Source of the DNA: a bacterium
Lineage (GTDB): Bacteria > Blakebacterota > Blakebacteria > Blakebacterales > Blakebacteraceae
DNA: 14,586 bases
Direction: 5' to 3'
Assembly: GCA_025774615.1 (NCBI GenBank)
Contig: JALGVQ010000054.1
Location: forward strand, 1 to 14,586
In this document: positions 1-13,383 of the stretch, piece by piece
Layout of the letters: each line of letters begins with the position of its first letter
Position numbering within the stretch: the first letter of the stretch is position 1
Made by a program: the position numbers and the translations under genes
Notes under the pieces: generated by a model
Database searches by the model: none
What the model was told of the DNA's origin: nothing
Seen by the model: the letters and a program-made list of their open reading frames with translations, nothing else

Positions 1-684
1 GGGTCCGTCGGGCAGGTCCCAATATCCGGTCAGCTCACTCTTCTCCGGAAGAAATCTTCGGAAATGCGCCGGCGGCAGGCTCACCATCCCTTCGAAAAAG
101 GTCCTCTCCCAGGTTTCTTCCCGGTTCCTTCTGAGCAGATGGCGGGAGAGATAGACCTCATCAGGTCGGGCCGTGATGCCGGGGCAGGCAAGGATCGCCT
201 TGATCTCAGAGGCGAACACGATCGTATCGCCGCTGCGATGGTAATAGATCGGTTTGACCCCGAAGCGATCACGGACAAGCAGGAGTATCGGCCTTCGCGG
301 ATCGAAGATCGCGAAGGCAAAGTCACCCTTCATCCTGGCAAATGCCGCCTCTCCGCGCGAAAGCCAGCTCTCCAGCACCAGTTCAGAATCGGGCAGGTCG
401 GTCGCGGATTCCGGAGTTTGTCCCAGGTCTGAGAGGAGATCCTCCCGGTTGTCGAGCCGCCCATCGAATACGATGACCGCTCCACTCTCATGCACCACCG
501 GTTGGGTCTCACGGGCCGACTCCGGGGTGATGCGAAAGAGCCGGGAGCACATCCCGATCGACCCCTCGATCCACATGCCATCTGAGTCGGGTCCCCGATG
601 GGCAAGCGCATCGCTCATCCGCGAGAGAACCCCGGGGTCCACCGGTTTCCCGCCCCGATGCCAGATGCCGGCTATTCCGCTCAT
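1..684 (-). CDS. Asparagine-synthetase-like lasso cyclase (C protein), 3' part beyond the window
   Basis: The first 228 residues are visible; the gene leaves the window at base 1. They form a class II glutamine-amidotransferase-like domain: MSGIAGIW start, HRGPD (29-33), GDFAFAIFD (120-128) and RDRFGVKPIYY (138-148). Two features argue against real asparagine synthetase. Residue 2 is Ser (codon AGC), not the catalytic Cys, and the usual NGE glutamine-binding segment reads DGR (74-76). Both are compatible with lasso cyclases, which adenylate a side-chain carboxylate in the C-terminal synthetase domain and need no glutaminase. The ATP-binding synthetase domain lies outside the window. The ATG at 684 lies 10 nt after the B2 stop with no clear Shine-Dalgarno sequence, so translational coupling is likely. 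The immediate B1/B2 neighbours decide the assignment. Alternative: another amidotransferase-fold enzyme of RiPP or surface-polymer synthesis. Confidence 0.85.
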   Translation of the reverse strand, partial: MSGIAGIWHRGGKPVDPGVLSRMSDALAHRGPDSDGMWIEGSIGMCSRLFRITPESARETQPVVHESGAVIVFDGRLDNREDLLSDLGQTPESATDLPDSELVLESWLSRGEAAFARMKGDFAFAIFDPRRPILLLVRDRFGVKPIYYHRSGDTIVFASEIKAILACPGITARPDEVYLSRHLLRRNREETWERTFFEGMVSLPPAHFRRFLPEKSELTGYWDLPDGP

Positions 685-694
685 ATCGGGAAAT

Positions 695-1150
695 TCATGC
701 CGATGTCAGGGGTTGATAACCATCTTCAGGATCGTACCCGAAGATGGGAACCCCGTTCCGTTCGAGCCAGGCATGTGCTTTCAGGTGCTCCCCGGTACGA
801 GTCACACCGATGCGCAACTCTGTATCAATATGTTTCCGATCGAGGATCCGGTGCAGAACCAGGGACTCCTTCAAACAGGTTGTTCTGATCGGAGCAAACC
901 GGCCGGCGCTCTCAACCAGCCAGGCCGCTCGTTTGATGAAAACCTCAGTTTCCTCCTCAGGGATACTCACCAGCCCGGTCCCTCTGTCGGAATAACGATC
1001 GAGAAGCCGTTTTACCGAAACGATGCGGAGAGTGAGGTCCACCCTGATCAATAACACCCATGCCAGGAGAAAGAGAGTTCGTTCGGAGGACGTAAGCCTG
1101 GAAAAGGTCCTGCTTCGTTCAGCGAGAGATCTCAACCAGCCCATTTTCAT
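695..1150 (-). CDS. Lasso peptide biosynthesis B2 protein (transglutaminase-like leader peptidase)
   Basis: A 151-residue protein matching the Transglut_core3 / lasso B2 family in length and layout. It has a basic N-terminus, a hydrophobic helix (about 26-46), a TTCLKESLVLHRIL segment holding the presumed nucleophile Cys92, and AHAWLERNGVPI holding the presumed catalytic His126. The third triad residue, usually Asp about 12 residues after His, is less clear; Asp140 at +14 is nearest. In known lasso systems B2 cuts the leader off the precursor once B1 has bound it. The start is uncertain: ATG at 1150 or 1144 (Met3). Both give a 26-32 nt overlap with the 3' end of the B1 gene, and no good ribosome binding site is seen, so coupled translation is likely. 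The stop lies 10 nt before the cyclase ATG. Confidence 0.85.
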   Translation of the reverse strand: MKMGWLRSLAERSRTFSRLTSSERTLFLLAWVLLIRVDLTLRIVSVKRLLDRYSDRGTGLVSIPEEETEVFIKRAAWLVESAGRFAPIRTTCLKESLVLHRILDRKHIDTELRIGVTRTGEHLKAHAWLERNGVPIFGYDPEDGYQPLTSA

Positions 1151-1409
1151 CCAGTCGGGCGACGAGATCGAGAAGATCGCGCTCACTACGGTCCGATTCG
1201 ACGTCGAATTCATCGAGCAAAGCGACGTGCACATCGTTCAGGATTTCATGCTGCTGCAGAAGCGCCCATATCTTTGTACCGACTGGATCGAGGCCAAAAT
1301 AAGTTCCCGACTCCAGATTGAGGAGCACTGCTTCCCCATCCAGATCCCGGAAGACGATATCTTCCTTAACCCGTACCCGGGAGGCGAGTGTAGCTTGATC
1401 AGTAGTCAC
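1119..1409 (-). CDS. PqqD-like RiPP recognition element (lasso B1 protein)
   Basis: A 96-residue stand-alone PqqD-fold protein. The family pattern is clear: VKEDIVFRDLDGEAVLLNLESG (14-35), then TYFGLDPVGTKIWALL (36-51), then a C-terminal helical part ending DLVARLDENGLVEI. Such proteins bind the leader of a ribosomal peptide and present it to the processing enzymes. With a separate B2 and an AsnB-like enzyme next door, this is the split B1 of lasso systems, not a PQQ-synthesis PqqD. The ATG at 1409 lies 2 nt after the stop of the lipoprotein gene, and its 3' end overlaps B2, so the three genes are almost certainly one transcript. The substrate precursor is not seen in the window. Confidence 0.88.
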   Translation of the reverse strand: MTTDQATLASRVRVKEDIVFRDLDGEAVLLNLESGTYFGLDPVGTKIWALLQQHEILNDVHVALLDEFDVESDRSERDLLDLVARLDENGLVEISR

Positions 1410-1411
1410 AC

Positions 1412-1951
1412 CTACCTGCCCAGTGAAGTGCTCAGAATAGTGATTACATCGAGAGCGATGCTCCTGGATGGCGTCTCGATGATCCGTCCCACCTCGACAC
1501 CCCTGTGCTCCAGCACGAATGTCGGGAGCGCCGAAATCTCATATCGTTCGGCCAATCCATCCCTGTCCCGAAGGCGGCGGTCCATACCAACAATTGTTAC
1601 GCTTACCCGCTTGTTCTCAACCTGTTGAAGGGATGCAAAGAGTGCCGGCACATGGATCTGAGACGAGACATTCCAACTACCCATGAAGATGAGAATCGTG
1701 ACGTCTTTGCGCAGATCCCGAAGATAGGTTACCACTTTCCGATCGGGAGAGATCAGGTCGGTCCGGGAGCGGAATATGGCGATATTGTCGAGGACCCACT
1801 GCATGTCACCCTGGCCGTACATCTCATTTCCATCAAGCCCGGCAGGTGTGACCGCCTCCTTCTGCTCAGATGACCCACAAGAAGCTATAAGCAACACCAC
1901 GACCAGGGCAGAGAGAGAGATAGCTGTGGAGTGCCTCTGGATTCTGATCAT
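1412..1951 (-). CDS. Thioredoxin-fold lipoprotein lacking the CXXC active site
   Basis: A 179-residue protein with a lipoprotein signal: basic start, hydrophobic stretch (11-22) and lipobox IASC with Cys25. The rest looks like a thioredoxin/TlpA-type domain: beta strand VTILIFMG (84-91), then SWNVSSQIHVPAL, and a cis-Pro motif ALPTF with Pro143. Where active relatives have W-C-x-x-C or W-C-x-x-S, this one has Trp93-Asn94-Val-Ser-Ser, so no redox cysteine remains and Cys25 is the only Cys. It cannot act as an ordinary disulfide reductase and may be a binding or scaffold protein at the membrane. AAGGA 8 nt before the ATG supports this start. It begins 9 nt after the cold-shock gene and ends 2 nt before B1, which ties it physically to the lasso cassette. 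Its role there is unknown. Confidence 0.8.
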   Translation of the reverse strand: MIRIQRHSTAISLSALVVVLLIASCGSSEQKEAVTPAGLDGNEMYGQGDMQWVLDNIAIFRSRTDLISPDRKVVTYLRDLRKDVTILIFMGSWNVSSQIHVPALFASLQQVENKRVSVTIVGMDRRLRDRDGLAERYEISALPTFVLEHRGVEVGRIIETPSRSIALDVITILSTSLGR

Positions 1952-1960
1952 GGCGTTCCT

Positions 1961-2407
1961 TCAGGAATTATCTTTGTCCCCTTCATCCTCTTCGTCCACT
2001 TCTTCCCCGGCGGCCTCAGCCAGGTTCTCCTCCGGATCATCCGGAGAAACTGTGTCGGTCTCATCTGACACAGCGCTATCACCAGATTCCACTGCAATCT
2101 CTTCTGCAGCTTCCTCCACAACCTCTTCTGCGGCTTCCTCCACAACCTCTTCTGCAGCTTCCTCCACCTTCTCTTCGCCCTCCGGCGACACCGCAACGGC
2201 GGTCATTCCTTTTCTCAGGATATTTGCCGCCTGTGGACCTTTTGGTCCCTCAGTGATCTCGAACTCCACCTCTTCGCCTTCCTTGAGGGTACGGAATCCC
2301 TCACCGGCGATAGCGGTATAGTGCGCGAACACATCCGGGCCCTCTATCTGGCTTATAAACCCATAGCCCTTCTGGTTATTGAACCACTTCACTGTACCAT
2401 TCGGCAT
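1961..2407 (-). CDS. Cold-shock domain protein with long acidic Ala/Glu-rich tail
   Basis: Residues 1-66 are a CspA-type cold-shock domain, an OB fold that binds single-stranded RNA or DNA. It starts [10 protein letters not shown] and carries RNP1 KGYGFI (13-18). RNP2 reads VFAHY (26-30) instead of the usual VFVHF/Y. Typical Csp proteins end near residue 70. This one is 148 residues, with a strongly acidic tail (79-148) that includes a VVEEAAEE repeat and a run rich in Asp, Ser and Glu. The tail may modulate nucleic-acid binding or act as a flexible linker; that is inference. A purine-rich AGGAG lies about 12 nt upstream of the ATG. The gene heads the tightly packed minus-strand run that includes the lasso-type genes. 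Confidence 0.93.
2101..2172 (-). repeat. Three tandem 24-nt units inside the cold-shock gene
   Basis: Three adjacent 24-nt units (2101-2124, 2125-2148, 2149-2172) are nearly identical. Units 1 and 2 differ at one base, and unit 3 differs only in its last bases. On the coding strand they give in-frame copies of an eight-residue VVEEAAEE-type block in the acidic tail. The unit length keeps frame, so copy number could change without breaking the gene. Confidence 0.9.
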
Positions 2408-2566
2408 AGCGTGCCTGCTCCTGCGTCCGGGTTATCCTGATCACTGACCCAAGTGACCGGGACCGGCATGCAACTGGCCGGAACATTTAATGATGCCCGA
2501 ATAACCTGTTCGGCTACAAGCAGTTTCTCGCTTGAGGGATCCCGGAGCGAAGATATCGGATGGTGA
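2408..2566 (-). other. Intergenic leader between rlmB and the cold-shock gene
   Basis: These 159 bases are the only sizeable gap in the minus-strand run from recG to the cyclase. They probably hold the promoter and 5' leader of the cold-shock operon. Two dyads are visible: 2528-2550 (TCGCT/AGCGA arms around an inner GGGATCCC) and 2441-2456 (TCACT/AGTGA arms). Neither is followed by a U-run, so they are not classical intrinsic terminators. No convincing -35/-10 pair was found. The dyads could belong to a structured leader, as is common for cold-shock genes. Confidence 0.35.
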
Positions 2567-3322
2567 TCAGGTCGTGGTCTCTCCGCGTTGTCGAGAGATC
2601 TCATACAGCACGATACCAGCGGCGACCGAGGCATTCAGGCTCGATGTAGCGCCCGTCATCGGTATGGAGGCGATCATGTCACAGGCCGATCTCACCACCG
2701 GCCTCATCCCCTTCTCCTCACCACCGATCACCACCGCGAGAGGTACGGTCAGGTCGATATCCCTCAGAGGAGTGCCCTCCTCACCGGCGGTCCCCATGAT
2801 CCACAATCCGTCACTTTTCAACTCTTCGAGCGTCCGGGCGAGATTGGGAACCCGGCAAAGGGCCAGGTGACGAAGCGCTCCGGCCGCCACCTTCTCCGCG
2901 GTTCCCCCGGGTGAGGCGGATCGATGCCGGGGCAGGATGAGAGCATCCGCTCCCAGCGCTTCAGCGCTCCGGGCGACTGCTCCCAGATTGTGGGGGTCCT
3001 GGATGTTGTCGAGGGCCACCAGCAGGGGCGTATCGCCTCCGTCGGTCACAGATCTGACGATTTCCCGGTGATCGGAGAAGAGGACCGGCGCAACGATCGC
3101 TACCACCCCCTGATGGAGACCACGGTCAGTCTGTCGATCAAGCCCGTCCCGGGGCTGGAAGACCACCGGCACGCCGGCATCTTTTGCGAGTGTGAGCAGT
3201 TTCTGAAGGCGGTCGTGCCTGTGCCCCTCGACGAGGATGAGTTTGTGGACCCGGTCGGGGCAGACCTCGAGCGCCTCCCTCACGGTATTCACGCCGAATA
3301 TGAGGTCGTCCCGTTCAACCAT
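2567..3322 (-). CDS. rlmB: 23S rRNA 2'-O-methyltransferase of the SpoU/TrmH family (RlmB-like)
   Basis: A 251-residue SPOUT-class methyltransferase, predicted to methylate the 2'-OH of G2251 in 23S rRNA with SAM. The N-terminal part (FGVNTVREAL) is the RNA-substrate-binding domain. The catalytic domain carries motif 1 DNIQDPHNLGAVAR (105-118), motif 2 VVIGGEEKGM (197-206) and motif 3 SSLNASVAAG (227-236), which form the trefoil-knot SAM site. I chose ATG 3322 because GAAGGA lies 9 nt upstream. An in-frame TTG at 3328 would sit only 3 nt from that site. It starts 16 nt after the recG stop, so the two are probably co-transcribed. The exact target (G2251 versus another rRNA or tRNA position) is by family resemblance. 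Confidence 0.92.
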   Translation of the reverse strand: MVERDDLIFGVNTVREALEVCPDRVHKLILVEGHRHDRLQKLLTLAKDAGVPVVFQPRDGLDRQTDRGLHQGVVAIVAPVLFSDHREIVRSVTDGGDTPLLVALDNIQDPHNLGAVARSAEALGADALILPRHRSASPGGTAEKVAAGALRHLALCRVPNLARTLEELKSDGLWIMGTAGEEGTPLRDIDLTVPLAVVIGGEEKGMRPVVRSACDMIASIPMTGATSSLNASVAAGIVLYEISRQRGETTT

Positions 3323-3338
3323 CCGCAATGATCCTTCC

Positions 3339-5477
3339 TCAGGCGATATCTGCCAGAACTATCCGTTGTCCCAGTCGACGCTCCAGCGTCATCCGCCATC
3401 GATCGAGGATCTCGATCGGAACGGATGGTTCCGCGGGATCAGAACCATCCAGGGCGACTCCCAGCGCCGCAAAGGCATCCTCACGCGCTTCGCCCAGCAG
3501 TCTCTGATCGGTGATCAGGTTCGCCACGCGGAGGTCAGGGAGTCCGTGCTGCCGGGTCCCGAAGAACTCACCTGGTCCTCGAATGTCGAGATCAGCTTCA
3601 GCGATCCGGAAACCATCGGTGGTCTCAACCATGGCCGCGAGACGCCGTTCACCCTCTTCGGTGAGCTGCTCGCTCTCGAGGAGAACACATGTTGCCTTTC
3701 CCCCGCCTCTGCCGACCCTGCCGCGGAGCTGGTGCAGCTGTGCGAGTCCGAAACGTTCCGCGTGTTCGACCAGGATCATTGTGGCACCCGCGATATCGAC
3801 TCCCACCTCGATGACGGTGGTACTCACCAGCAGATCCACTTCCCCATCCCGGAAACGTTTCATCACGTCATCCTTCTCTTCCGGCTTCAGGCGCCCGTGG
3901 ACAAGCCCCAGCCGAAAGTTCCCCAGTGGGCCGGATCGGAGCCAGTCGTACGACTCGACTGCGGCCGCCAGGTCGCTCTTCTCGGACTCTTCAACCAGGG
4001 GAAAGACCCAGTATACCTGTTTACCATCAGCCAGTACTTCTCCTATCCGTTCGATCACCTTCTCCCTTTTTGTCAGGGGAACCCGACAGGTCTCCACCGG
4101 CTGGCGGCCGGGGGGCATCTCGTCGATCACGCTGACAGCCAGATCACCGTACAGGGTCATGGCGAGTGTTCTTGGAATGGGAGTCGCCGTCATGACAAGC
4201 ACGTCAGGGTCACTCCCCTTGGCCTGAAGCTCACCACGCTGCAGGACACCGAACCGGTGCTGTTCATCAACCACTACCGCTCCGAGCGCGCTGAAATCGA
4301 CATCGTGCTGGATGAGCGCGTGGGTTCCGATCGCGACCGAGGGGGTACCCGATCCGAGCGATCGCAGAACCGATTCACGCTCAGTCCCACTGAGCCGTGA
4401 GCTGAGGAAATGGACTTTCACATCGAGACGCGAGAACTCATCCCGCAGGCGTCTGGCATGCTGATCGGCAAGTATCTCGGTCGGCGCCATGAGGGCCCCC
4501 TGCATGCCCTGTTCAACGGCCGTCAACAGCACACACGCCGCCACCACTGTCTTCCCGCAGCCGACATCCCCCTGCAGGAGGCGGCTCATCGGATACGGAC
4601 TCCCCATATCCTCGAACACTTCAGCCACCACCCGCTGCTGGGCCCGGGTAAGTGAGAAATCAAGACCTTCCAGGTATTCCCGTACGAGGGGGCCCCACGT
4701 TCGGAACGGGGTACCGGGTCGACGCTGTATCTTCCTGCTCCGATCGGCCAGGAGGAGTTCCATGAAGAAGAACTCTTCGTACGCCAGGCGTCTTCTGGCA
4801 GATTCCGCCTCCTCGTCCGAACGAGGAAAATGAAGGCCTTCGAGAGCCTCGGCCAGACTGACGAGCTCCCGCCGATCGATCAGTTCATCTGTGAGTGGAT
4901 CCTCCACCTGCTCTTTGAGCTCATCGAGAGCGTTCCGCATGATCCGGCGCAGACCGCGACTGGCCAGTCCCACGCTCCGCAGTTCAGCGGTGAGCGGGTA
5001 GATCGGTATCAATCCACCCGCATGGAGGGTGTCCTCGGGGAGTTCCCCCGATTCCGAGAGTTCTTCGACCGAACCGAGCACCTCGAACTCGGGGTGGGCG
5101 ATCTGCACCCCACCCCGGTAGAGGCCGACTTTTCCCGAGAGAACCACCAGATCGCCGCCGCGTAATGCGTTCTTTACATAGGGAACCCCGCGGAACCAGA
5201 CGCATTCGATGATACCGGTACCATCGCTCACTTTCGCCAGGAACCTCGGCTTGCGTCCCCGTGCCACACTGGCGGTCAGCACTTCTCCCAGAACAGTGAC
5301 CTGTTCCCCTTCCCGCAGTTCGGAGATCGGGGAGCAATGGCGCCTGTCGACATAACGACGAGGAGCGTGGAAGATGAGGTCTTCCACGCTCCTGATACCT
5401 ACACTCTCGAGTGCCTCTGCCCGGGCTGGACCAACTCCCTTCACATACTGGACGGGAGCGGCCAGCCGGTCGGTCAT
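3339..5477 (-). CDS. recG: ATP-dependent DNA helicase RecG
   Basis: The full-length protein is 712 residues, close to the usual size. An N-terminal helix-hairpin-helix-like part (YVKGVGPARAEALESVGI) leads into the OB-fold wedge domain (about 55-135), which splits forked DNA. The superfamily 2 motor follows: Walker A GDVGCGKT (303-310), motif II DEQHRFG (404-410), motif III TATPIPRTLA (430-439), motif V STTVIEVGVDI (552-562) and motif VI QLRGRVGRG (583-591). The C-terminal DIRGPGEFFGTRQHG block (631-645) is typical of RecG. It reverses stalled replication forks and helps process Holliday junctions in the cytoplasm. The ATG lies 19 nt after the barrel-protein stop; the upstream GAGG is unusually close. 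All motifs look intact. Confidence 0.98.
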   Translation of the reverse strand: MTDRLAAPVQYVKGVGPARAEALESVGIRSVEDLIFHAPRRYVDRRHCSPISELREGEQVTVLGEVLTASVARGRKPRFLAKVSDGTGIIECVWFRGVPYVKNALRGGDLVVLSGKVGLYRGGVQIAHPEFEVLGSVEELSESGELPEDTLHAGGLIPIYPLTAELRSVGLASRGLRRIMRNALDELKEQVEDPLTDELIDRRELVSLAEALEGLHFPRSDEEAESARRRLAYEEFFFMELLLADRSRKIQRRPGTPFRTWGPLVREYLEGLDFSLTRAQQRVVAEVFEDMGSPYPMSRLLQGDVGCGKTVVAACVLLTAVEQGMQGALMAPTEILADQHARRLRDEFSRLDVKVHFLSSRLSGTERESVLRSLGSGTPSVAIGTHALIQHDVDFSALGAVVVDEQHRFGVLQRGELQAKGSDPDVLVMTATPIPRTLAMTLYGDLAVSVIDEMPPGRQPVETCRVPLTKREKVIERIGEVLADGKQVYWVFPLVEESEKSDLAAAVESYDWLRSGPLGNFRLGLVHGRLKPEEKDDVMKRFRDGEVDLLVSTTVIEVGVDIAGATMILVEHAERFGLAQLHQLRGRVGRGGGKATCVLLESEQLTEEGERRLAAMVETTDGFRIAEADLDIRGPGEFFGTRQHGLPDLRVANLITDQRLLGEAREDAFAALGVALDGSDPAEPSVPIEILDRWRMTLERRLGQRIVLADIA

Positions 5478-10267: not shown

Positions 10268-10879
10268 CTATTGCGCGTTCCGGTAGAACTCAGCCACCTG
10301 ATCCCAGTTCACCACGTTCCACCACGCTCCGATGTAATCGGGGCGACGGTTCTGGTAGTTCAGGTAGTACGCGTGCTCCCACACATCGAGACCGAGGATG
10401 GGTGTGTTGCCCTCCATGAGTGGTGAATCCTGATTGGCGGTGGAGTACACCATCAGACCACCGTCGCCGGTCACGACCAGCCATGCCCAGCCACTGCCGA
10501 ACTGGGTCGCGGCCGCAGCCTCGAATTCTTTCTGGAAGGCTTCGAAGGAACCGAATGAGGCTGTGACTGCCTCTCCAAGTTCCCCCTCCGGCGCTCCTCC
10601 TCCATCCGGTTTCATGATCTGCCAGAAGAGGGTGTGGTTGGCATGCCCGCCACCGTTGTTGATAACGGCGGTTCGGAGCGACTCGGGCAGTGAGTCGACC
10701 TCGGTGAGCAGATACTCGATCTGCCGGGAGTCGAAGTCGGGGTGTGCCTCGAGCGCCGCGTTCACCTTGCTGATATAGGCAGCGTGATGCTTCGAGTGGT
10801 GGATCTCCATGGTACGGGCGTCTATGTGCGGTTCGAGTGCAGAGTAATCGTACGGAAGTTCAGGAAGTTCAAATGGCAT
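10268..10879 (-). CDS. sodA: Superoxide dismutase, Mn-type, cytoplasmic
   Basis: A 203-residue Fe/Mn-family superoxide dismutase without a signal peptide. Metal ligands are intact: His27 (MEIHHSKHH), His82 ([11 protein letters not shown]), Asp165 and His169 (DVWEHAYY). The GGGH context before the second ligand and the outer-sphere Gln150 in STANQDSPL follow the manganese pattern; iron enzymes usually put this Gln near the second His. It converts superoxide to oxygen and peroxide in the cytoplasm. GGAG lies 8 nt before ATG 10879. A strong promoter and a 15-bp dyad lie upstream (10937-10965), with a weaker copy of the 19-bp rrf2-type dyad beyond them. Metal choice is predicted, not proven; some family members are cambialistic. 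Confidence 0.96.
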
Positions 10880-12584: not shown

Positions 12585-13298
12585 TCAGACAACTCGTTCG
12601 AACCTCTGTGCTATATCATCCCAGTTCACGACATCCCACCATGCCTTCACATAGTCGCCGCGACGGTTCTGATATGACAGATAGTAGGCGTGTTCCCACA
12701 CGTCGAGCACCAGAATGGGGATCGCGCCCCATACGGTCAGGTTCTGGTGTTTCTCCGCTTCGAGGATCAACAGGCGTCCCGCTGTCGGGTGCCAGGCAAG
12801 TATCCCCCATCCACTTCCCTCGACCTGGGAGGCGGCGGCGGTGAATTGAGATCGGAACGAAGCAACTGTTCCGAAGTCACGCTCGATCGCCTCTCTGAGT
12901 CCACCGGTGGGATCTCCTCCCCCCCCGGGACCCATGTTCTGCCAGAAGAGTGTGTGCAGGAAGTGACCCGATCCATGGAATGAGAGCGCCCTGCTCAGCT
13001 CCTTGATCCCGGCAGTGTCCTCCGAACCACGCTTCCCGGCGAGTCCGGTGAGAGCCCGGTTGAGTCCGCGCACGTACCCGGCGTGATGGATATCGTGATG
13101 GAGTCGCATGGTCTGCGCGTCGATAACAGGCTCCAGGGCATCATAGGCATAAGGAAGCGGCGGGAGTGTAAATTCCACCTGCGGATCCTTCGAACTCCCG
13201 ACCGGATCAAGGGCGGAAGTAAAATCGAATCCATTGAGGACCAGACTGCCTCCCAGAACCATCGACCCACTCCCGATAAAATCTCTCCTTGTGCTCAT
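12585..13298 (-). CDS. Superoxide dismutase with Tat-type signal, exported
   Basis: A 237-residue Fe/Mn superoxide dismutase with an N-terminal extension of about 40 residues. ATG 13298 follows GGAGG at a slightly long spacing. The extension reads STRRDFIGSG, a twin-arginine motif, then a moderately hydrophobic stretch (SMVLGGSLVLNGF). Export of the already folded, metal-loaded enzyme by Tat is therefore predicted. All four metal ligands are present: His67 (MRLHHDIHH), His115 (SGHFLHTLFW), Asp199 and His203 (DVWEHAYY). EKHQN (182-186) supplies the outer-sphere Gln seen in Mn-type enzymes. It would remove superoxide in the periplasm or at the surface. It is a diverged paralogue of the sodA product at 10268. 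The 19-bp dyad at 13365-13383 lies in its upstream region. Confidence 0.92.
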   Translation of the reverse strand: MSTRRDFIGSGSMVLGGSLVLNGFDFTSALDPVGSSKDPQVEFTLPPLPYAYDALEPVIDAQTMRLHHDIHHAGYVRGLNRALTGLAGKRGSEDTAGIKELSRALSFHGSGHFLHTLFWQNMGPGGGGDPTGGLREAIERDFGTVASFRSQFTAAASQVEGSGWGILAWHPTAGRLLILEAEKHQNLTVWGAIPILVLDVWEHAYYLSYQNRRGDYVKAWWDVVNWDDIAQRFERVV

Positions 13299-13364
13299 AT
13301 GCGTTCTTCCCTCCTCTGATCGCGCGGTGGCGGCTGCTGGACAGTTACGGAGCACCGGATAATC

Positions 13365-13383
13365 TGTAACCATTGTTGTGACA
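13365..13383. promoter_or_regulatory. 19-bp dyad upstream of the exported SOD gene
   Basis: TGTAACCATTGTTGTGACA: arms TGTAAC and GTGACA around a 7-nt centre. It shares both arms exactly and the same spacing with the dyad at 13507-13525 in the rrf2 promoter. On the minus strand it is next to a possible -10 (GATTAT, 13359-13364), 60 nt before the SOD start codon. Confidence 0.6.

What the first reader, a model, noticed from the sequence alone, without database searches (positions are those of the whole stretch)
1..1409. Lasso-peptide maturation cassette (B1-B2-C) with no visible precursor
Seen: a PqqD-fold protein, a Cys/His transglutaminase-like B2 and an AsnB-like protein in immediate succession, overlapping or 10 nt apart. 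Known: this trio (RRE, leader peptidase, cyclase) is the diagnostic set for lasso peptides. The gene order B1-B2-C differs from the common A-C-B1-B2. No 30-60 residue precursor fits in any gap inside the window, so it must lie left of base 1 or elsewhere in the genome. An orphan or unusual lasso system in a little-studied lineage could make a new peptide.
Basis: partly seen in the sequence, partly recalled or inferred. Interest (0 to 1): 0.8.

Follow-up and report, generated by a model that had tools for sequence, protein, structure and literature searches.

The report
Lasso-peptide gene cluster cut by contig
These genes are the first half of a lasso-peptide (knotted antibiotic-like peptide) gene cluster in a barely sampled bacterial phylum. 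The peptide gene looks missing because the assembled DNA breaks off in the middle of the third gene, right where relatives keep it.

Summary
The three genes are real. They encode a PqqD-fold recognition protein (B1), a lasso-type leader peptidase (B2) and the N-terminal 228 residues of a lasso-type cyclase (C). The window is an entire contig (C31), and base 1 cuts C before its synthetase domain. The other side of the break can be recognised. In a congener, the thioredoxin-like gene next to B1 is followed about 10 bases on by an L,D-transpeptidase gene. In this genome that transpeptidase lies on contig C54. C54 begins with 65 residues scoring as the C-terminus of an HPr-kinase-like lasso kinase (K), then the genome's only NTP_transf_5 nucleotidyltransferase (N). 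The cluster therefore most likely reads B1-B2-C-[at least 2 kb unassembled]-K-N, inserted between two core genes.

Other clusters with the same B1-B2-C order (Halopiger plasmid, Nitrospirota, Nostoc, Paenibacillus) carry a precursor-like ORF 16-112 bases after C. In Halopiger, Nitrospirota and Nostoc a K gene follows. The Nitrospirota core is textbook (T at -2, Gly1, Asp8). So "no visible precursor" is most simply an assembly gap, and the order is recurrent rather than unusual.

Verdict: a truncated new member of the known kinase/nucleotidyltransferase lasso clusters (bsf and psm type). The product is unknown; neither precursor nor synthetase domain is in the assembly.

The parts
1119..1409 (-). 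B1: PqqD-fold RiPP recognition element, 96 aa, GTG start, directly after the thioredoxin-like gene
   Evidence: PF05402 57.6 bits; best NCBIfam model NF033536 lasso_PqqD_Bac 60.2 bits (below its cut-off of 80)
695..1150 (-). B2: lasso leader peptidase (transglutaminase-like); Cys92 and His126 of the 151-aa form are invariant in the six sequences aligned; most likely start ATG at 1150
   Evidence: PF13471 75.8 bits; NF033537 lasso_biosyn_B2 81.9 bits, cut-off 33; alignment A1
1..684 (-). C: N-terminal 228 aa of a lasso-type macrolactam synthetase (MSGI start, Ser2 in place of the glutaminase Cys; DGRLDNR motif), truncated by the contig end
   Evidence: NF033535 205 bits over profile positions 1-223/668; closest proteins tested are the C proteins of Nostoc 40%, Halopiger 40%, Methanothrix 39% and Nitrospirota 36%
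1412..1951 (-). Thioredoxin-like lipoprotein gene: flank, NOT part of the cassette. It has a 60% identical orthologue in congener G001, which has no B2
1961..2407 (-). Cold-shock protein with acidic repeat tail: flank, not part of the cassette
   Evidence: PF00313 E 2e-27

Best explanation
This is the 5' part of a lasso-peptide biosynthetic operon, B1-B2-C-[unassembled gap holding the rest of C, most likely the precursor A, and most of K]-K-N, inserted in the chromosome between a thioredoxin-like lipoprotein gene and an L,D-transpeptidase gene. By analogy with characterised clusters, B1 binds the precursor leader, B2 cuts the leader off, and C uses ATP to join the new N-terminus to an Asp/Glu side chain, closing the ring around the tail. 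The HprK-like kinase and the NTP_transf_5 protein would (poly)phosphorylate the peptide and add a further group to the phosphate. Shown here: gene identities, truncation, synteny of the two contigs, K and N at the far side, and precursor position in relatives. Inferred: that A lies in the gap, that C has a synthetase domain, all enzymatic steps, and the product.
For: B1, B2 and C identities. The window is all of contig C31. Congener G001 has thioredoxin-like and L,D-transpeptidase genes about 10 nt apart and no B2. The transpeptidase orthologue in this genome (72% identity) is on C54, preceded by NTP_transf_5 PF14907 (151.7 bits; the only copy in the genome) and by a 65-aa ORF end. That end scores 24.4 bits against a K profile, aligned near its C-terminus, above all 2000 shuffles (best 3.7). 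Contig ends are unique in the assembly. Halopiger has the order B1-B2-C-A, then K and N, Nitrospirota B1-B2-C-A-K and Nostoc B1-B2-C-A-A-K-ABC. The Halopiger and Nitrospirota precursors pass the lasso leader model NF033521 (19.3 and 19.8, cut-off 19). Motif hits in shuffled relatives average 0-0.08 per locus. Known clusters bsf and psm carry the same kind of K + N pair.
Against: The precursor and the C synthetase domain are not in the assembly. A tree of the C N-domain alone leaves this protein between lasso cyclases and AsnB (support 91/81, not decisive). The join between C31 and C54 rests on synteny with one congener plus gene content, not on sequence. K is judged from 65 residues. B1 is below the lasso-specific PqqD cut-off. 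No transporter has been located. The Methanothrix cluster of the same order shows no motif-bearing precursor.
Confidence: 0.85

Rival explanations
1. A true orphan cassette: B1-B2-C without a local precursor, acting on a peptide encoded elsewhere in the genome.
For: No leader-motif ORF in the window or on C54; no NF033521 match above cut-off in the whole assembly.
Against: An estimated 2 kb or more, exactly where relatives keep A, is missing from the assembly, and the assembly is 82% complete. The YxxPxL-G-T DNA pattern gives only 2 hits in the genome, against 6 for the reversed control, and neither lies in an in-frame ORF of 20 aa or more with a start codon upstream.
Confidence: 0.08
2. A non-lasso PqqD/transglutaminase system: a peptide-modifying cassette of the PqqD-HprK-radical SAM-B2 kind, or an AsnB-type amidotransferase of a surface-polysaccharide pathway.
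For: Distant B2 relatives in two other small phyla sit with PqqD, HprK-like and radical SAM genes and no AsnB beside them. The C N-domain alone is also 35-37% identical to ordinary AsnB. In G003 the same chromosomal spot holds PqqD, a CN-hydrolase and NTP_transf_5 without B2 or C in view.
Against: C follows B2 in tandem and has Ser2 and RLDNR as lasso cyclases do; NF033535 outscores TIGR01536 and TIGR03108 by 60-70 bits on the N-domain; no radical SAM gene lies beside it; close same-order relatives carry lasso precursors.
Confidence: 0.07

Closest known systems
bsf lasso cluster of Bradymonas sediminis (BsfA, B1, B2, C, D, K, N), PMC10368454
   Same: Split B1/B2, C, plus a kinase and a nucleotidyltransferase
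   Different: Here the precursor, most of K, the C synthetase domain and any transporter are unassembled; barely sampled phylum; gene order and sequences of bsf not compared
pseudomycoidin cluster (PsmK + PsmN), reviewed in PMC9266682
   Same: Kinase plus nucleotidyltransferase-family tailoring pair in a lasso cluster
   Different: Experimentally shown to (poly)phosphorylate and then add hexose; substrate here unknown. Precursors of the same-order relatives with K found here do not end in Ser
Halopiger xanaduensis plasmid pHALXA01 cluster (NC_015658)
   Same: B1-B2-C in the same order and tight spacing, precursor ORF directly after C, K and NTP_transf_5 nearby; C N-domain 40% identical
   Different: Archaeal plasmid; K and N on the opposite strand; ABC transporter upstream; precursor not listed in the gene table
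Nitrospirota MAG cluster, SCVQ01000273 (L045)
   Same: B1-B2-C-A-K on one strand; B2 40% identical, the closest B2 found
   Different: Contig too short to show N; core GSKGSFAD... visible there, not here

Membership tests
Lasso peptide biosynthetic cluster | Discrete RRE (B1, PqqD fold) | tested here: met
   PF05402 57.6 bits; best NCBIfam model is lasso PqqD, but below its cut-off
Lasso peptide biosynthetic cluster | B2 leader peptidase with catalytic Cys and His | tested here: met
   NF033537 81.9 bits, cut-off 33; C92 and H126 invariant
Lasso peptide biosynthetic cluster | C: AsnB-like protein with the glutaminase Cys replaced | tested here: met
   GATase_7 domain; MSGI with Ser2; NF033535 is the best model
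Lasso peptide biosynthetic cluster | C: ATP-using synthetase domain (PF00733) | tested here: inconclusive
   Contig ends before it; not found elsewhere in the 82% complete assembly
Lasso peptide biosynthetic cluster | Precursor with YxxPxL/T(-2) leader and Gly1...Asp/Glu7-9 core | tested here: inconclusive
   None in C31, C54 or the assembly; the expected position is unassembled; a leader-motif ORF directly follows C in four same-order relatives
Lasso peptide biosynthetic cluster | ABC transporter (common, not obligatory) | tested here: inconclusive
   No match to three lasso-linked ABC transporters in the window or on C54; the gap may hold one; the rest of the genome was not searched
K/N-type lasso clusters (bsf, psm) | HprK-like kinase and nucleotidyltransferase in the cluster | tested here: met
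   On C54, joined by synteny: K tail 24.4 bits, PF14907 151.7 bits
PqqD-HprK-radical SAM-B2 cassettes (as in G042 and G044 phyla) | Radical SAM gene beside B2, no AsnB | tested here: not met
   An AsnB-like C lies beside B2 and no radical SAM gene is seen there; compare
XrtA/PEP-CTERM amidotransferase | TIGR03108 as the best model, above cut-off | tested here: not met
   136 bits against 205 for the lasso cyclase model; the cut-off of 816.9 cannot be reached by a 228-aa fragment, so only the ranking counts

The most novel reading that the evidence does not exclude
The gap holds a precursor unlike known lasso leaders, or none at all, and the K + N pair makes a phosphorylated and further decorated lasso-type peptide in an uncultured phylum. 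It would be a lineage-specific variant of an architecture (B1-B2-C-A-K-N) shared by archaea and several bacterial phyla.
Probability: 0.12. Interest if true: 0.5.

Novelty: new member of a known kind. Interest (0 to 1): 0.3.

Why it matters
It extends lasso-peptide clusters with kinase and nucleotidyltransferase tailoring to a phylum represented by four held genomes, and shows that the B1-B2-C-A order recurs across archaea and several bacterial phyla. It also shows how a contig break can imitate an 'orphan' cluster, and gives a concrete two-ended target (C31 left end to C54 left end) where the precursor can be recovered by one PCR or long read.

Tried and rejected
(1) Close relatives of B2 by a single-protein scan of genome contigs, viral contigs and plasmids: nothing. 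(2) Continuation of C elsewhere in the assembly by PF00733: only NadE, GuaA and MnmA. (3) Precursor elsewhere in the genome by YxxPxL..G..T DNA pattern: fewer hits than the reversed control. By NF033521: only sub-threshold hits; in this genome they lie antisense to or inside longer ORFs. (4) Lasso-like small ORFs by the bare T(-2)/G1/D7-9 rule: too many chance hits to use. (5) Overlap or repeat at the contig ends: none. (6) B2 hits in G042 and G044 phyla as lasso relatives: rejected, they are PqqD-HprK-radical SAM cassettes. (7) A five-sequence B2 alignment was too divergent to scan with. (8) Thioredoxin and cold-shock genes as cassette members: rejected by synteny with G001. (9) The original pseudomycoidin paper (PMC6993621), wanted for the chemistry of N, is not held.

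Full report
OBSERVATION. The window is the whole of contig C31 of a fragmented genome (3.3 Mb, 324 contigs, 82% complete), from a phylum with only four held genomes. On the minus strand it reads: cold-shock protein (2407-1961), thioredoxin-like lipoprotein (1951-1412), B1 (1409-1119), B2 (1150-695) and C (684 to beyond base 1). B1 matches PqqD (57.6 bits). B2 matches Transglut_core3 and passes the curated lasso_biosyn_B2 cut-off (81.9 against 33). The 228 visible residues of C are a glutaminase-like domain whose best NCBIfam model is the lasso cyclase NF033535 (205 bits), ahead of asparagine synthase (146) and the XrtA amidotransferase (136). C begins MSGI, like most lasso cyclases aligned with it (MSGI, MSGF), where the two complete AsnB proteins aligned have MCGI. 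It also carries RLDNR where those AsnB proteins have EIYN. B2 keeps the invariant Cys and His.

WHAT IS ON THE OTHER SIDE OF BASE 1. No cyclase-type PF00733 domain exists in the rest of the assembly; the three weak hits look like NadE, GuaA and MnmA from their translations. The congener G001 has no B2 but keeps the thioredoxin-like gene (60% identity). There it is followed about 10 nt later by an L,D-transpeptidase gene. The orthologue of that transpeptidase in the window's genome (72% identity; YkuD domain) sits on contig C54, a 3,576-base contig. Upstream of it, on the same strand, C54 carries a 401-aa NTP_transf_5 protein (PF14907, 151.7 bits), the only one in this genome. Before that comes the last 65 residues of an ORF cut by the contig end. 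A profile built from 13 HprK-like proteins of lasso and related clusters scores this 65-residue tail 24.4 bits, aligned to profile positions 239-296. The best of 2000 shuffles of the tail scores 3.7. The ends of C31 and C54 occur nowhere else in the assembly, so the break is not visibly caused by a repeat. The simplest reconstruction is that the cassette was inserted between the thioredoxin-like and transpeptidase genes (or lost in G001), and that a piece is missing that holds the rest of C (about 1.25 kb, judged from Halopiger C), most of K (about 0.7 kb) and whatever lies between them.

WHERE RELATIVES KEEP THE PRECURSOR. I used plasmid records and one scan of genome contigs with the window-plus-Halopiger B2 alignment and annotated all loci by pairwise profile search. 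Six loci have B1, B2 and C contiguous in that order: Halopiger xanaduensis (archaeal plasmid), a Nitrospirota MAG, a Methanothrix MAG, Nostoc sp. CMAA1605, Paenibacillus cellulosilyticus and Priestia megaterium. In four of them a small ORF with a lasso-leader motif follows C by 16 to 112 nt. In Priestia two such ORFs lie 3.8 kb downstream. None lies upstream of B1 in the sequence held. In Methanothrix none was found. Motif hits in shuffled copies of four of these loci average 0 to 0.08 per locus. The Nitrospirota precursor, MTTQRQPETPPPTPGKKAYAAPHLVEYGNIAKLTG/GSKGSFADGK..., shows YxxPxL, T at -2, Gly1 and Asp8. It and the Halopiger ORF both pass the curated leader model NF033521 (19.8 and 19.3 against 19). 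K follows A in the Nitrospirota and Nostoc clusters; K and N follow on the opposite strand in Halopiger. The visible pieces here (B1-B2-C at one end, K-N at the other) therefore fit the same plan, with A expected in the unassembled piece.

HOW IT MOST LIKELY WORKS. From the known roles of these families (B1 binds the leader, B2 cleaves it, C makes the macrolactam), the product is a lasso peptide. K and N resemble the pairs in the bsf cluster of Bradymonas sediminis, where BsfK phosphorylates Ser3 of the precursor (PMC10368454), and in the pseudomycoidin cluster, where PsmK phosphorylates and PsmN adds hexose to the phosphorylated Ser (PMC9266682). A phosphorylated and possibly further decorated peptide is the inference. 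The precursors found in the same-order relatives that have K do not end in Ser, so the paeninodin rule (C-terminal Ser as the target) may not apply.

ALTERNATIVES. Distant B2 relatives in two other small phyla belong to PqqD-HprK-radical SAM cassettes without AsnB beside them, so B2 alone is not proof of a lasso system; the tandem C with Ser2 is what argues for it. A tree of the C N-domain places this protein between lasso cyclases and AsnB with support 91/81, so it does not settle membership. A true orphan remains possible but has no positive evidence. In G003 (same family, other genus) the spot beside the same transpeptidase carries PqqD, a CN-hydrolase, a 75-aa peptide with RRDFLAKSA and NTP_transf_5, so this junction may repeatedly host PqqD-linked cassettes.

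VERDICT. This is an ordinary but genuine lasso-type cluster of the K/N kind, truncated by assembly, in a poorly sampled phylum. It is a new member of a known kind, and its product cannot be predicted until the gap is closed.

Noticed in passing
L083 (G003:C61) 1263-4555: In another genus of the same family the spot upstream of the same L,D-transpeptidase holds a PqqD-domain protein, a CN-hydrolase, a 75-aa peptide with RRDFLAKSA and an NTP_transf_5 gene on the opposite strand, but no B2 or C: a possible hot spot for PqqD-linked peptide cassettes.
   Followed up: partly
L028 9030-9191: A 53-aa lasso precursor-like ORF (YSPPELTEYGSIESVT leader, passes NF033521), absent from the gene table, lies directly after the cyclase on the Halopiger xanaduensis plasmid. 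Its residue after T-x is Gln rather than Gly, as in Nostoc L050 (ITEQV).
   Followed up: partly
L017-L023 (G042, G044 and their phylum mates): All 7 genomes searched in two small phyla carry a B2 homologue; in most of the loci read it sits with PqqD, HprK-like and radical SAM-like genes and no adjacent AsnB, apparently a conserved non-lasso use of B2.
   Followed up: partly
L039 7537-7758, L030 6515-7051: Paenibacillus and Priestia B1-B2-C clusters have Cys-containing precursor-like ORFs (LIQG-TCGWGTENLSLD..., LIQG-CGGWGTENLTLDD...); the Priestia cluster also has DsbA and VKOR genes: possibly disulfide-bearing lasso-type peptides.
   Followed up: no
1961-2407: Cold-shock domain protein with an acidic tail of [15 protein letters not shown] repeats; the matching stretch in congener G001 (L042, about 7.5-8.4 kb) looks repetitive and longer.
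   Followed up: no
10268-10879 and 12585-13373: Two iron/manganese superoxide dismutase-like genes close together, one with a signal-peptide-like extension, judged from the translations only.
   Followed up: no
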